A stretch of 64,000 nt of DNA from Chalara sp. BL73. Its lineage: Eukaryota > Ascomycota > Leotiomycetes > Helotiales. Location of the stretch: positions 124,001 through 188,000 of the forward strand of contig CAKJVC010000087.1 in NCBI GenBank assembly GCA_918026815.1, written 5' to 3'. Shown in pieces: positions 27,043 through 33,286 of this stretch. A program made the translations under genes and the position numbers. Below the pieces are notes generated by a model. The model worked only from the letters and a program-made list of their open reading frames with translations. It was not told where the DNA came from and ran no database searches. The first letter of the stretch is position 1. Each line of letters opens with the position of its first letter.

Positions 27043-27050
27043 TATAGACC
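27043..27050. repeat. Left target-site duplication of the hAT element
   Basis: TATAGACC, identical to 33279-33286. Confidence 0.95.
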
Positions 27051-27180
27051 TAGACTGCGAACTGGGGTCCCACGGGGCGGGTTTTCACCTACTTGACCCC
27101 ACCCGTCGGGGTCCCACCCCATGGGTTGGGGTCTATCAAAAGCACCCACCCCACCCCATGGGGTCTTGATGGGGTGCCAA
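27051..27180. repeat. Left terminus and subterminal palindrome array of the hAT element
   Basis: The terminal TAGACTGCG is followed by GGGGTCCCACGGGGCGGGT and several variants of GGGGTCCCACCCC and CCCCATGGGG up to about 27173. Such subterminal motif clusters are usual transposase-binding sites in hAT elements; binding here is inferred. Confidence 0.8.
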
Positions 27181-27395
27181 GCACCCATTACATTTACACG
27201 TGACATTACAATAGTTGCTGTACAGTTAGAGAAGTTATACTAATAAGTCTACTAATCAAAAGCTACGCGACATAAACGTATTAAAATTTTGGTTTGTGAA
27301 TTTTATTATGTGCTTAGCGCCCTATCGCTAGCGTGTATACCTTTAATAACTCCATTGCTTAACCCATTTCCTTTGTATGAACTGCGTTTGATTCT

Positions 27396-27944
27396 TTAAC
27401 ACCGGCCTGGGTACTTGTAGCCCGTCATTCCCTCTCTCATTCTTTGAACCAAATGCATATCCTTTACTTGAATAGTAACTCTCTTAGCGTGGATTGCGGC
27501 AAGATTTGTGACTTTAAAGTAATATTAGTATAAATATTAGTATAATGTATTTATATGAAATAACTTACGCTCGAACTCAGCTACCAAAGCAGATTCTGCG
27601 GCTTCTTGGAGACATTGTAAAGCACTAAGTTGAATGCGAAATGCGTGTCGAGACGTAATATCATACATTATTTCCCTAACTAGTCGAGTAAATGGAGCTT
27701 TTGGGATTAAAAGCTCAGTGCTTTTTGGTATCGTTTGATTTCTCTAAGTGCTTTGGCTACGTTTAAATGTTAGTTTTATACTAATTATTATATTAATCAA
27801 CTTACTGCCAGGTTTCAATCGATATTTCTTCTTTGGTACAGCTTTTGCAGAGGTTTTAGCAGAGGTTTTGGCAGAGGTTTTGGCAGAGGTTTTGGCAGAG
27901 GGTTTGCGAGCAGATTTGGTAGCTATTTTCTTGGTACGTGCCAT
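27396..27944 (-). pseudogene. Transposon-borne histone H3 / CENP-A-like gene with one frameshift
   Basis: Three exons on the minus strand: 27806-27944, 27569-27756 and 27396-27511; introns are 49 and 57 nt with GTAAGT donors. The tail keeps the H3 start MARTK, then ATKSARKPSAK (compare H3 residues 22-32), then four or more KTSA units, then KKKYRLKPG. The histone fold follows: [52 protein letters not shown] and KDMHLVQRMR. Loop 1 is two residues longer than in H3, the CENP-A length. The H3-H3 interface residues H113, D123, L126 and R129 are kept. Between YQK and STEL the A run (27722-27726) is one base short, breaking the frame; both sides align to H3, so it is a lesion in this copy or an assembly error. 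Predicted length without it is about 147 aa. Confidence 0.85.
27841..27905. repeat. 12-bp tandem repeat coding the KTSA units of the histone tail
   Basis: Five near-identical copies of GCAGAGGTTTTG on the plus strand; each encodes four residues (K-T-S-A in cyclic order) on the minus strand. Unit-number changes would lengthen or shorten the tail in steps of four residues without a frameshift. Confidence 0.85.
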
Positions 27945-28467
27945 TGTAACCTATTAAGATTAGAATAAATATTAGTATAATACAGAATAATATGTACCTG
28001 TGCAAAGTCGCAAATTATTTTCAGAAAAGGTGAAGGTGAATGTGAATATTGACACGTGAAATTGAAATTATAGCTTTGTGATTTCGACGAGAAGACTATA
28101 AAGAATTAGTATAATGATTAATATAAAAATAGAATATAAAAAAGATAAATATAATACATACTTGTGTATGGTGTAGTTGTTGGTAAATTTAATTGAAGGT
28201 TAAAAGAAGTCAGGTTTAAAAAAAGTAGTTGGATGCCTTAAAATCGAGGCATAAAAACGCGACTGCCTTATTTTTCAGGATAACGCGTACTTTTCCCTCA
28301 TTCATTCTTTTTGCACCAACTTATTAAATCTGAACAAAGTCAAACATCTATCGCAGTACGTGTTTTTGGTGTATTATATTAATCTTTATACTAATTTTTG
28401 AAGCTCTAGTTCTTGCGAGTTGAAATTTGCAAAATACGCCTACTTTTCGGTTGCGTTACTTTCCAAT
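27945..28467. promoter_or_regulatory. Divergent promoter region inside the hAT element, with probable 5' UTR introns of the histone gene
   Basis: 523 bp separate the histone start (-) and the accessory-gene start (+). Read on the minus strand, two GT...AG segments precede the histone ATG (about 28163-28097 beginning GTATGT, and about 27998-27953 beginning GTACAT); both contain the TATACTAAT-type motif, so the transcript probably has spliced leader exons. Confidence 0.5.
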
Positions 28468-29772
28468 ATGGCTTCACCTTTCGAAAAGCAACCTCCTCAG
28501 GTAATTTTTATTGAAATATTATATTAATCTGTATACTAATCGGTTTCAAGGATATCATTGTCATTTCTGATGATTCAGATCATGAATTTGATATGGATCT
28601 TGATTCCTCGCAGCAAATCGGTTCTTCCAATAAACGCAAGCGCAAATCTCCGGGCAGTTTTTCTACCAATGTGCATACTGTTAAAGCTAGAAGAAGACTT
28701 GAAGCTATAAAAAGCAACAGTATTCAAAATCAGATCGAAAAAGCGAAAGCCGCAGATCAAGCAGCAATTACATACAGAAAAAAAGTACTCAAAAAGTCTG
28801 CCGAATTTGCACTCGCATCTGTTGCCGAGCAGAAGCGAATGATTGAGCAGTCTGCTTTGCAAGTTAGAACAAAGCGGTTCGTTTAATTTTGATTATACTA
28901 ATTTTTATACTAACCTGTATAGTGAACGAGATGGCAAAGATTGGAAATCTGTGGCAAAAGCTTTGGGTTATGGAGAAATTGGTGGCCTATATGCAATTGA
29001 TGATGATGGAAATCCAGCATGGGAAGATATTGAGTATGAATCGGAAGACGAATACGAGTTTGAGCATATGTGGAGATTGAATGAAAAGCAAAACGGTGAT
29101 AAAGCAGTTGTCGGCAAATCTGCTAAAGAGTTGAAAAATGACGGGATTGCCAAGCATAAACGATCCATTTTAGTAAGTTTCAGATTAATATAATGATTCG
29201 TATAACGCTAATACAATTTCAGGATGCCAAAAAGCTTGAATTTAAGTTTTGGCAAAGAAAATGGCGCCGAAGCCGTCGATCTTTGTTCCGCAAAATCCGA
29301 AAGCTTGCTGCTGGTGGACAGGAATACTTGGAAAGAACAAGCTGTCCTTACATTTACAAGAAGTACAAATTTCTACTAATTTTTATACTAATCTGCTAAC
29401 TGATATAGCAAATTCTATGCGTATAAAACTCCTGAAAGATACTTTACTCAAGGAGAAAAGGCAATTTGGAAAAATCTTGCAGCATGGGCATACGGAAATG
29501 AAGAGTGGATCGATCTGCCGGGCCCTGCAAATTGGTGGCCAGCCGACGATAAGTTAAATGACACAGGATTCGGCTTCTCCGATTCGTTGACAGGCCATAG
29601 AGAAGCGTTTGATATGGTATATGCTACGGAAATTCCGGAAGATGGATCATACGAACGTATTTTCCCCGCTTATAATGATTTGTTTTTGATGACAGACAAT
29701 TCTTTAAGTCAAACAATCGTTAAAGCATTCTTTGGTTTACAAAGCAGCTTTCAAAAGCCGCGTAAGCTGTAA
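28468..29772 (+). CDS. Unknown 370-aa accessory protein of the hAT element
   Basis: Five exons join in phase (28468-28500, 28551-28876, 28923-29172, 29223-29362, 29409-29772); the frame is intact. I recognise no family. Residues 13-21 read IIVISDDSD, a good match to a SUMO-interaction motif with its acidic flank. KRKRK at 39-43 is a nuclear-localisation-type cluster. Residues about 60-120 are Lys/Ala/Glu-rich and likely helical. A basic aromatic stretch KFWQRKWRRSRRSLFRKIRK lies in exon 4, and the C-terminal third is Trp/Tyr-rich (IWKNLAAWAYGNEEWIDLPG). A nuclear DNA- or chromatin-binding role is an inference from these features only. It sits between the histone gene and the transposase and has the same intron style. 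Confidence 0.75.
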
Positions 29773-30009
29773 ATGTATATGTAGTTTTTAAGTATATACA
29801 ACAAATGAAGCAAGGAACTTTAAGCAGATATATTCAATTTTATACTAATCTTTATACTAATCATTATATTTTACATTAATTTTTGGAAGTTTAATTATAA
29901 CCTTTAATATGTACAATTTTTTGGAAGTAGTAATTTAACTTGTGTTTAAATACTTGTTTTTTCTTTCCGATTTGATGCTTTTTTTTTTTACTTGCACACT
30001 TTTGTTGCT
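29773..30009. other. AT-rich spacer between accessory gene and transposase
   Basis: Holds two adjacent TATACTAAT-type copies near 29840-29865; probably terminator of the accessory gene and promoter of the transposase. Confidence 0.5.
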
Positions 30010-32715
30010 ATGGAGTCAAGCAATTCGCAAGACTTTTCTGATCCTTTTAGCTCATTTGAGCCAAATACTTCTGACAATTTACTATTTTCGCAAATTGGTC
30101 CAAAAAACCTATATTTTCGATGGGAACTCGAATATCACGATAAGTTTGTTGAATGGTGGTTAAGTACACAATGGGCAGTTCAAGCAGTTGCAAACCAATC
30201 AATTGATTTGGTAAAGCAATTAAATTGGAAATCTCAAAATCGAAAATCTATTGCTTGGAAACAATTCGATCAAGGAATACACCGGATCACCGGAGAGCCT
30301 AAAGTCATATGTCAAAACTGCAACAAGGTTCTCGCACATCCAAATACGCGGAATACCGGCACAAAAGCTTTGTCTGGTCATATAGCGTCTCGGCAATGCT
30401 TTGTTTATTCTAGCCAAAGTAATACAAGGCAGAAAAAAGTGGAAGACATGTTTCACGCTATCTCTGTAAGTAGATTAGTATAAATATTAGTATAATGTCT
30501 AATATTAATAGCAACCAATCTTTACGAAGCAAGCATTTCACGACCAGGTTCTTGCAACTATTGTTTCACTTCGTACTTCTTTCCGCGCAGTCGAAAATCC
30601 TGAATGGAGAAAGCTAGCTGTTATGCAAAATCCAAATTTCGAACTTCCTTCTGCAACAACTATGAAGAATCGACTAATGGAACAATCAGTCAAACTTGAA
30701 CAGAACATGCTTTCAAATGTTGTTCCTGGAAGCAAAATTGCAATTTCTCTTGATTGCTGGTCTAGTACAACAAGACTATCATTTATGGGTATAATAGCTC
30801 ACTATATTGATAAGTCATGGGTTCTTTGTCAAGAATTAATAGGATTTGAAAGTTTAGTAAACGTTCATTCCGGAAATGCGCTTGCTCAAGTTGTCAATAA
30901 CGTTTTTCAACAGCACAATCTTTTTGATCGTGTTGTTTCAATTACAACTGATAATGCGAGTTCGAATACTACAATGGTTCTCGAAATCAACGGATACTTA
31001 CAAGAAGCTTTGAAAGCTAATAGTATTCTAAAAAAGAAAGTCCAACACGTGCCGTGTTTATCGCATGTGATTCAGCTTAGTCTTCAAGCACTTTTGGGCT
31101 TTGTTCAATTGAGGCCTACTAACGACACATTTGTTCGGAATTGGGTAGCAGAAAAAGAGCTGTCTGATCTTGAGAGAATCAAAGCTAGTGACAAACGTGG
31201 TATTCCATATATACTAGCAAAGGTATGTAACACGTGACTTTTATACTAATTTTTATACTAATCTTATATTAGATTCGAAAGCTTGCTATTCTTGTTAATT
31301 CCAGTGCACAGCGGAAACATCGATTTCAAAGAGTTCAACAAGAACAAATCAGAGATTCATCTTCTCCGAATGATCCAGTTCTTACATTGTTAATTGATGT
31401 ATGCACTCGATGGGACTCAACAGTGCATATGATTCTTCGTGCATTGCGTCTTAAAGAGTCTATCAATCAATTTTGCAGTGCATACGATCCTGCTAAGCCT
31501 TTTTTCTTTTTCTGCATTAGAATGGAAAAAACTTGGCTATTTGGCCGATTTGTTACGTCCTTTCAATTTTTTTACAACAACAATCGGCAAAACAACAAGC
31601 ATAACATTGCCTTATGCTTTATCAATTTACGATGAATTGTTTGAACACTTGCAAGAATCTCGCCGAGTATTAACCAAAAAGTCTGTTGCTCAACTTTGGG
31701 TAAAAGATTTAATTGGTGCGATTAACGCTGCAGAAGCCAAGCTTGATACTTACTATAACAAAACATATAGTAGTCTTGGTAGTTTGTATGGCATCGGAGC
31801 AATTCTTGATCCAAAATCGAAGCTAAAATGCTTTGAAGAAGATTACTGCTGGCTTAATTTCAAAACAGTTGATTGGGCCAAAGAATTTGAGCGTCAATTT
31901 CGGTCGTTATACGATACGGAATATAAAGAAAAGTCTACGAATGCTGACCGACTTTCTCAAATTCGAGAAGTTAATCACGACCCTTTAGCATTGGCATTAA
32001 GTCGCAAGCGCTTTACTCGAGACATTCAGAACCCTTATCGCAAAGATGATGACTTTTCTCCTTCTGAAATTGATGAATGGCTGGCTATGAGTATGTTTAC
32101 AATTCTACTTTTTATACTAATTTTTATACTAATCTTTGTGTTGTTTTTTTAGAGCCTGATAATCGATCACCGCTACTTGTTTGGAAATCGCTTGAAACAC
32201 AGCTTCCTGGCTTATCAGCAATGGCTAGAGACTTACTTTGTATCCCGATGGCCGGTGTTGGAGTAGAACGTGCTTTTAGTTTTGCACGTGATATATGCGG
32301 ATATCGCCGTGGCCAGCTTCAACCGACAACTATTCGGTCGCTTCTTTTGGTTTATCATTCGCTCGTTGAACATTCACGAACACGTGAGCTTCAAAATCTA
32401 CTATTTTCAACTATTAATATCCAGGATATGACACTTGAAGATATGGAAACGGAAATTAAAACGCGAGAAAATGATCTTGAAGTCCAACTTGATCAAATTG
32501 ATCTTTGGGAAAATCATTACTATATTAGTGATGAAGAACCAGAAGGAAAAGCAAAAGTTCGAACTCGTCGTGCTCAAGAACGCTTGGATTACAAGATTTC
32601 TAAATCTTTACGTCAAACAATTCATCAAAATCCACTTTCGACTACTCAGTTTCAAAATACACTTAGGAATCGCCGCGAACCGTCAATTGGAAACAACGAA
32701 CTGGGAACTATCTAG
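30010..32715 (+). pseudogene. hAT transposase with N-terminal BED-type finger, probably one frameshift
   Basis: Exons 30010-30465, 30512-31222, 31273-32090 and 32153-32715; about 848 aa if the frame is continuous. A BED-like zinc finger (VICQNCNKVLAHP, then LSGHIASRQC) precedes the catalytic core. ISLDCWSS and SITTDNASSNTTM carry the first two acidic residues of the hAT DDE core. The C-terminal dimerisation domain has ARDLLCIPMAGVGVERAFS and CGYRRGQLQPTTIRSLL; the Glu of VERAFS is the usual position of the third acid. In exon 3 homology shifts from frame 1 to frame 2 at the T run 31500-31512. A GT-AG segment 31478-31520 could remove it, but it lacks the TATACTAAT motif typical of this element's introns and would delete conserved-looking residues. 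Confidence 0.88.
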
Positions 32716-33140
32716 TAATAGTAGTCAAGAGCTGCCTCGACTTCCGACTCCTGGTATTGGTAATATTGTGCCGGATACTCCAATAGGCATTCACAGGTCA
32801 AAAAAGCAAAAAAAAAATTAGTTTTAGAATATTAGTGTTGTATTATTATAATTCACAATTTTTTCCACTCTATTACAATATGTTTAGATTTAACATTTGA
32901 AGTTTAATTTTTATACTAATTTTTATACTAATCAACCACTTTGCATTTCAAGTACTTTTGTAAAAACAAGTATACAAAATAGCCTTGTTTAACCTGTGTG
33001 CACATAGAAAAATCAATGCCAAAACTGGAAAGAATCATCTCGATACTAGAATACCTCGTATATTTTTAAAATTCCGCCAGTCCGCCCTACATTCTTGTAG
33101 AGGAGTTTGACTGTAGTTTCTATATTTAGTTAATCTTATC

Positions 33141-33278
33141 GGGGCCCCATTGAGGTCCCGCGGGTTGGGGTCAAAATATACAACCCACCCCACGGGGGAA
33201 GCGAGCCTCGAAGACCCGACCCACGGGGTCCCATGGGTCGGGGGCCCCGGCCCGCCCCGTGGGTTTCTGCGCAGTCTA
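33141..33278. repeat. Right terminus and subterminal palindrome array of the hAT element
   Basis: Mirror of the left array: GAGGTCCCGCGGGTTGGGGT, CCACCCCACGGGGG, GACCCACGGGGTCCCATGGG, then CCCGCCCCGTGGG and the terminal CGCAGTCTA. Confidence 0.8.
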
Positions 33279-33286
33279 TATAGACC
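33279..33286. repeat. Right target-site duplication of the hAT element
   Basis: TATAGACC, identical to 27043-27050. Confidence 0.95.

What the first reader, a model, noticed from the sequence alone, without database searches (positions are those of the whole stretch)
27051..33278. A hAT DNA transposon carries its own histone H3/CENP-A-like gene
Seen directly: inverted ends TAGACTGCG, flanking 8-bp duplication TATAGACC, hAT transposase, and between the ends a spliced minus-strand gene with a full histone H3 fold ([24 protein letters not shown]). Known: histone genes are host genes, and hAT elements normally carry only transposase. Inference: the element captured a histone variant and may use it to set the chromatin state of its own DNA, reach particular chromatin, or evade silencing. 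I know of no described transposon family with an H3 variant as a structural gene.
Basis: partly seen in the sequence, partly recalled or inferred. Interest (0 to 1): 0.97.

Follow-up and report, generated by a model that had tools for sequence, protein, structure and literature searches.

The report
Jumping gene with its own histone
A jumping DNA element in a likely fungal genome carries its own unusual histone H3 gene in all 25 complete copies found, and a paired DNA tag in each of its predicted introns, and it likely uses the two together to keep its DNA from being silenced; histone-carrying elements of this general kind were first described in 2013.

Summary
27051-33278 is a hAT element (9-bp inverted ends, duplication TATAGACC) with three genes: a minus-strand H3-like histone (H3L), a middle gene of unknown function, and a hAT transposase. 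It is a family: 25 complete copies of about 6.2 kb, all with H3L, 25 of 25 with perfect 8-bp duplications at 24 distinct sites. Of 8 copies read in full, one (contig C133) has all three genes intact; in the window copy H3L and transposase are frameshifted.

H3L is not CENP-A-like; it groups (100/99) with H3-like proteins of five other fungal genera. And the kind is known: Manning et al. 2013 described a hAT element with transposase, central ORF and H3L.

New here: H3L's introns lie elsewhere than host H3's, so it is no recent host copy. A 21-bp double TATACTAAT module sits once in each of 9 predicted introns and in all 4 other non-coding stretches (15 in all), none in exons, and is nearly confined to this family. 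H3L lacks tail residues that a fungal H3K9 methyltransferase needs. I propose self-directed anti-silencing chromatin; untested.

The parts
27043..27050 (.). target-site duplication, left copy (TATAGACC)
27051..33278 (+). hAT element with H3L, middle gene and transposase (6228 bp)
27051..27059 (.). terminal inverted repeat, left (TAGACTGCG)
27064..27166 (.). G+C-rich subterminal repeats (GGGGTCCCA / CCCAC.. units)
27396..27944 (-). H3L gene, predicted exons 27806-27944, 27569-27756, 27396-27511; frameshifted in this copy, intact in 4 of 27 full-length copies
28468..29772 (+). middle gene, 5 predicted exons, 370 aa, no Pfam family; relatives in Chlorociboria and Tricladium
30010..32821 (+). hAT transposase gene, 4 predicted exons, 884 aa where intact (C133, C27); frameshifted in this copy
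27236..27256 (+). double TATACTAAT module, left terminal non-coding stretch (3 mismatches)
27524..27544 (-). double module, H3L intron 2 (exact)
27777..27797 (+). double module, H3L intron 1 (2 mismatches; antisense to H3L)
27959..27979 (-). double module, stretch between H3L and middle gene (1 mismatch)
28105..28125 (-). double module, stretch between H3L and middle gene (2 mismatches)
28375..28395 (+). double module, stretch between H3L and middle gene (1 mismatch)
28520..28540 (+). double module, middle gene intron 1 (2 mismatches)
28894..28914 (+). double module, middle gene intron 2 (1 mismatch)
29184..29204 (-). double module, middle gene intron 3 (3 mismatches; antisense)
29372..29392 (+). 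double module, middle gene intron 4 (1 mismatch)
29841..29861 (+). double module, between middle gene and transposase (exact)
30474..30494 (-). double module, transposase intron 1 (exact; antisense)
31242..31262 (+). double module, transposase intron 2 (exact)
32113..32133 (+). double module, transposase intron 3 (exact)
32912..32932 (+). double module, right terminal non-coding stretch (exact)
33152..33248 (.). G+C-rich subterminal repeats, right
33270..33278 (.). terminal inverted repeat, right (CGCAGTCTA)
33279..33286 (.). target-site duplication, right copy (TATAGACC)

Best explanation
This is a hAT DNA transposon whose own gene set includes a divergent histone H3 (H3L), and H3L is likely built into nucleosomes on the element's DNA, which the host's H3K9 silencing machinery would then be unable to mark. 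Shown: a three-gene family with 25 of 25 complete copies flanked by perfect 8-bp duplications; at least one copy with all three genes intact; H3L in one clade with H3-like proteins of five other fungal genera; a double TATACTAAT module once in every predicted intron and in every other non-coding stretch of the element, none in exons; H3L tail reading A7-T8-K9-S10-A11-R12-K13-P14 where H3 has A7-R8-K9-S10-T11-G12-G13-K14. Inferred: (1) H3L is expressed, pairs with H4 and enters nucleosomes; (2) such nucleosomes are poor substrates for the host's DIM-5-type H3K9 methyltransferase, so HP1 and DNA methylation are not recruited; (3) the middle protein, or the transposase, binds the modules and acts as reader or loader that places H3L on the element, so the effect is aimed at its own copies and other copies are helped in trans; (4) open element chromatin allows expression and transposition.
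For: Family and mobility. Intact copy C133. Purifying selection on the gene set between the C133 and burst lineages: 7 non-synonymous against 18 synonymous changes, dN/dS about 0.11, p 9.6e-8, or 9.3e-5 if only transitions are allowed for. Old H3L lineage; middle protein kept in Chlorociboria and Tricladium, the latter also with an H3L. Modules: 15 in the element, 1 in the rest of the window, 1 in 45.5 kb of control loci; 180 exact matches in the genome, reversed-pattern control 0, 98 of the 100 listed in element copies or fragments. Host has the machinery to be evaded: one Pre-SET domain, two chromo-shadow matches, and four matches to the DNA methylase family at three places. [quoted passage not shown] Arabidopsis VANC21 binds YAGTATTAY arrays in introns, intergenic and terminal non-coding regions of its own transposon and removes methylation (PMC5735166, passages).
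Against: No expression, binding or chromatin data. Of 16 near-identical copies only 3 have an intact H3L frame, so if those one-base differences are real the latest burst did not need H3L in cis. A 720-bp derivative without any gene has moved. Older copies are heavily hit by RIP-like mutation, so the element does not escape all host defence. In Neurospora R8A with wild-type H3 present had only a partial or no effect. H3L itself contributes 0 non-synonymous and 1 synonymous change to the selection test, which says nothing for H3L alone. Middle protein: no family, no structural match, and an unusable model. Six of nine intron modules are in sense orientation and TACTAAT resembles a branch point. 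The introns are predicted from splice signals and frame, not from RNA.
Confidence: 0.33

Rival explanations
1. H3L is a passenger: a histone gene caught once by the element and carried along without function, as the published 'transduplication' reading of similar elements holds. The modules would be unrelated.
For: 13 of 16 near-identical copies have a frameshifted H3L yet sit at different sites with perfect duplications. A gene-free derivative moved. Manning 2013 speaks of drift, Dhillon 2019 of capture of a housekeeping gene inactivated by RIP.
Against: Ten of 11 older copies are in frame apart from point changes, one (L028) is not; the frame-breaking indels cluster in copies too alike to be polished apart, so they may be assembly errors. 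H3L keeps the histone-fold core with relatives at 62% and 90% identity, and 4 of 27 copies are intact. H3L has its own introns and is not a recent copy of host H3.
Confidence: 0.3
2. H3L acts globally in trans: it poisons host heterochromatin as a dominant-negative H3, with no aim at the element. The modules serve splicing or transcription.
For: Ectopic tail-mutant H3 causes semi-dominant, genome-wide loss of DNA methylation in Neurospora. H3L departs from H3 at R8, T11, G12, G13 and K14.
Against: Does not account for the element-specific module array; a global effect would harm the host and favour every other transposon as well.
Confidence: 0.2
3. The modules are intron-making or splicing units (introner-like, each with branch-point-like TACTAAT) that spread inside the element, and have no chromatin role.
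For: One module per predicted intron, introns of 46-62 bp made largely of the module; sense orientation in 6 of 9.
Against: Six modules lie outside introns; 3 of 9 intron modules are antisense; two half-sites at a fixed 12-bp period are not needed for a branch point; 1 module in 45.5 kb of other loci, among them host histone genes.
Confidence: 0.15
4. H3L is a centromere-type histone that steers the element or its DNA to centromeres.
For: Loop 1 is two residues longer than in H3, a feature recalled for CENP-A.
Against: In the tree the six H3L proteins form one group (100/99) apart from host CENP-A and from H3; the place of the long CENP-A row is itself unsure. Left flanks of most copies have ordinary base composition.
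Confidence: 0.02

Closest known systems
H3L-bearing hAT element of Pyrenophora tritici-repentis (Manning et al. 2013, PMC3538342; passages and first part of section 20 read)
   Same: hAT transposase, central ORF of unknown function and an H3-like gene between the inverted ends; about 6 kb (5.6 kb there); many near-identical copies; H3L neither H3 nor CenH3; short derivatives.
   Different: Different fungal class by the relatives found. Perfect duplications at 25 of 25 copies here, while the paper reports no evidence of mobility. Module array not mentioned in what I read. Sequence homology to the Ptr element not tested: I had no Ptr sequence, and no protein named from Ptr is in the hit lists or among the 120 listed of 7647.
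H3-bearing hAT elements of Pseudocercospora, Cercospora and Sphaerulina (Dhillon et al. 2019, PMC6710886; abstract, Results, first part of Discussion read)
   Same: hAT ends, 8-bp duplications, H3-like sequence inside, RIP damage.
   Different: There a partial, intronless H3 retrocopy, about 9.5 kb, every copy RIP-inactivated; here a full-length gene with two predicted introns of its own, and four intact copies.
VANC / VANDAL anti-silencing system of Arabidopsis (PMC5735166 passages; PMC10398659 abstract)
   Same: Short A+T-rich motif repeated in introns, intergenic and terminal non-coding regions of the element that would encode its reader.
   Different: Mutator-like element, no histone; binding and demethylation were shown there and are untested here.
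TET/JBP-carrying fungal DNA transposons (PMC12730594 passages)
   Same: DNA transposons, hAT among them, carrying a chromatin or DNA-modification gene.
   Different: Carry an enzyme acting on methylcytosine, not a nucleosome component.

Membership tests
hAT superfamily | 8-bp target-site duplication | tested here: met
   25 of 25 complete copies
hAT superfamily | short terminal inverted repeats | tested here: met
   9 bp perfect
hAT superfamily | hAT C-terminal dimerisation domain in the transposase | tested here: met
   PF05699 1.5e-9, over the curated cut-off
hAT superfamily | RNase H-like catalytic core | tested here: inconclusive
   PF14372 at E 8e-4 but below its curated cut-off
H3L-bearing hAT elements (Ptr type) | transposase + central ORF + H3-like gene between the ends | tested here: met
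   architecture as in PMC3538342
H3L-bearing hAT elements (Ptr type) | H3-like protein that is neither H3 nor CenH3 | tested here: met
   with long-branch caution
H3L-bearing hAT elements (Ptr type) | common descent of the element sequences | not tested
   no Ptr element sequence was available
CENP-A / CenH3 | groups with CENP-A | tested here: not met
   only one CENP-A (the host's) was in the tree
CENP-A / CenH3 | centromere localisation | not testable with these tools
   needs ChIP
VANC-type anti-silencing (works like) | short motif array in the element's own non-coding regions | tested here: met
VANC-type anti-silencing (works like) | element-encoded protein that binds the motif and removes silencing | not testable with these tools
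   needs EMSA / ChIP; no sequence relation to VANC was tested

The most novel reading that the evidence does not exclude
The element is a self-addressed chromatin system: its own protein reads the TATACTAAT double modules in every intron and gap and loads its own H3 variant, so that each copy wraps itself in nucleosomes that cannot take the H3K9 mark. That would be a transposon-encoded epigenetic state, with introns serving as landing pads, and H3L would be a histone lineage that has evolved within mobile elements rather than in host genomes.
Probability: 0.15. Interest if true: 0.95.

Novelty: new variant of a known kind. Interest (0 to 1): 0.62.

Why it matters
Histone-carrying hAT elements are in print as accidental captures of a housekeeping gene. 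This family gives a testable alternative: the histone is old, has introns of its own, lacks the tail residues that silencing needs, and shares the element with a motif array laid out like that of a known plant anti-silencing transposon. If H3L is loaded on the element, it would be a direct case of a genome parasite changing nucleosomes to escape heterochromatin.

Tried and rejected
Chance or nested fragment: rejected by 25 complete copies with duplications. CENP-A reading: rejected by the tree. Recent copy of host H3: rejected, since host H3 is open only from about K9 to A127, which implies introns near those points, whereas the H3L introns fall at about codons 46 and 110; host CENP-A also differs. 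Viral relatives: one scan of viral contigs with P0001 gave none confirmed. Fold of the middle protein: mean pLDDT 46, not searched further; a PDB profile search gave one weak, uninformative hit. Fold of P0001 (pLDDT 63): best matches are nucleosome H3 chains at TM about 0.4, too weak to tell H3 from CENP-A. Insertion-site preference: no strong consensus among 18 duplications. RIP protection of modules: CpT sites in modules changed in 26 of 171 cells against 491 of 1380 in exons and 236 of 711 in other non-coding DNA, but CpA sites in modules changed more often (13 of 27), all-context rates are 44 of 225 against 532 of 2187, and the cells are related by descent; I do not build on it (rows L027, L028 and L036-L038 were dropped before this count). 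The copies held only in part or broken (C6, C53, C62, C73, C85, C114, C135) were left out of the count of 25.
Full report
The element. At 27051-33278 lies a hAT element with 9-bp perfect inverted ends and the duplication TATAGACC on both sides. It holds three genes: H3L on the minus strand (27396-27944, three predicted exons), a middle gene on the plus strand (28468-29772, five predicted exons, 370 aa) and a hAT transposase (30010-32821, four predicted exons, 884 aa where intact). Pfam finds a core histone domain in H3L (8.7e-30), the hAT dimerisation domain in the transposase, and nothing in the middle protein.

It is a family. A DNA search with the histone gene gives 33 matches, 27 of full length. 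Of these 27, 25 have both element ends, 6198-6254 bp apart, and all 25 have perfect 8-bp duplications: the window, 16 and 8. C17 and C18 share flank and duplication, so there are 24 distinct sites. The two others are C6 (left end replaced; right flank like that of the first C7 copy) and C73 (contig ends). A 720-bp derivative with the same ends and the duplication AGCATGAC, present on C127 and C183 with the same flank, holds none of the genes.

State of the copies. Fourteen copies differ by 0 or 1 substitution in the first 2.4 kb; eleven older copies carry 83-407 substitutions there, 85-98% of them C to T or G to A, the mark of RIP-like mutation. Of eight copies read in full, the middle gene is intact in six, the transposase in two (C133, C27), and all three genes only in C133. 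H3L has an intact frame in 4 of 27 copies: C178, C51, C133, C168. Among the 16 near-identical copies, three have one base fewer in an A-run, nine one base more in a C-run, one has both, three neither. The frame-breaking indels that I saw are in homopolymer runs, and ten of the eleven older copies are in frame; copies this alike are hard to polish, so assembly error is a fair suspicion that I could not test. The window copy also has a private cluster of differences at 32550-32689.

Selection. Between C133 and a burst copy (C27; C51 for H3L) the three genes differ by 18 synonymous and 7 non-synonymous changes, dN/dS about 0.11 (p 9.6e-8; 9.3e-5 when only transitions are allowed for). Middle gene and transposase carry this; H3L has 0 and 1.

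The histone. The nearest listed protein is from Bisporella sp. PMI_857 (90%), then, within the fungal H3-like group, Tricladium varicosporioides (62%) (120 of 7647 matches are listed). Five listed proteins share with H3L the signature EFE[LM]T..AAIHA.RVTI..KDM.LV.. In a tree with 15 H3 proteins that I picked from the list, host H3 and host CENP-A (both partial), the six form one group with 100/99 support; the element, Bisporella and Tricladium group at 98/95. The tool flags five long branches, host CENP-A among them. Whether the Pseudogymnoascus, Clarireedia and Talaromyces genes lie in transposons is unknown. A protein search of the genome finds H3L only in element copies or fragments, besides host H3 on C159 and CENP-A on C66. 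The tail reads ATKSARKP where H3 has ARKSTGGK, in the element and in Bisporella alike.

The modules. TATACTAAT occurs 20 times in the element and once in the other 57.8 kb of the window (0.34 expected per window), none overlapping an exon. As a double site with a 12-bp period there are 15 modules with up to 3 mismatches: one in each of the nine predicted introns, three between H3L and the middle gene, one between middle gene and transposase, one at each end. Six intron modules are sense, three antisense. One weaker copy lies at 2087 in the window and one in 45.5 kb of other hAT and histone loci. In the whole genome the exact double site occurs 180 times and the reversed control 0 times; 98 of the 100 listed lie in element copies or fragments, two on C9 do not. 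The seven other copies read in full keep 20 TATACTAAT sites, or 19 in RIP-hit C159.

Mechanism. The host has one Pre-SET protein (the DIM-5 type), chromo-shadow matches (HP1 type) and DNA methylases. [quoted passage not shown] R8A alone with wild-type H3 was weak (PMC3248561). H3L differs at R8, T11, G12, G13 and K14. The module layout is that of VANC21 targets (PMC5735166). From these I infer that H3L makes chromatin on the element that resists H3K9 marking, aimed by a module reader, most likely the middle protein. Every step of this is untested.

Prior work. PMC3538342 (passages, section 20 first part) describes in P. tritici-repentis a 5.6-kb hAT element with transposase, central ORF and H3L in 10 near-identical copies, with ESTs for H3L. 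PMC6710886 (abstract, Results, first part of Discussion) describes RIP-inactivated intronless H3 in hAT elements of six Mycosphaerellaceae. PMC3017866 (passages) mentions H3 similarity in a RIP-damaged S. nodorum repeat. My ten paper searches showed no report of such an element in Leotiomycetes and none of the module array; they cover open-licence papers only.

Verdict. A real, recently mobile member of a known kind, with new features. Interest 0.62: prior art lowers it, the module array and the old intron-bearing H3L lineage raise it.

Noticed in passing
   Followed up: yes
first about 200 bases of the element, older copies L025-L035: RIP-like change is rare in the terminal stretch (45 of 909 C/G cells) against 532 of 2187 in other non-coding DNA and 1353 of 4461 in exons; G+C-rich context or protection near the ends.
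   Followed up: partly
older copies, whole first 2.4 kb: RIP-like mutation hits CpA and CpT about equally, unlike the CpA bias reported for RIP elsewhere.
   Followed up: no
L092 (C127) and L093 (C183): 720- and 713-bp gene-free derivative with the same ends and duplication AGCATGAC, same flank on both contigs.
   Followed up: partly
window 32550-32689: Cluster of substitutions, a 3-base gap and an inserted base private to the window copy among eight aligned copies; possible assembly error.
   Followed up: no
contigs C6 / C7 start, C17 / C18 / C135: Same element locus on several contigs (shared flanks or duplication): duplicated ends or alternative haplotypes in the assembly.
   Followed up: partly
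window 27832-27906: 12-bp tandem repeat coding the KTSA repeats of the H3L tail; copy number differs in older copies and in the Bisporella protein.
   Followed up: partly
C9:1384442 and C9:1826263: Two exact double modules not in a recognised element copy.
   Followed up: no
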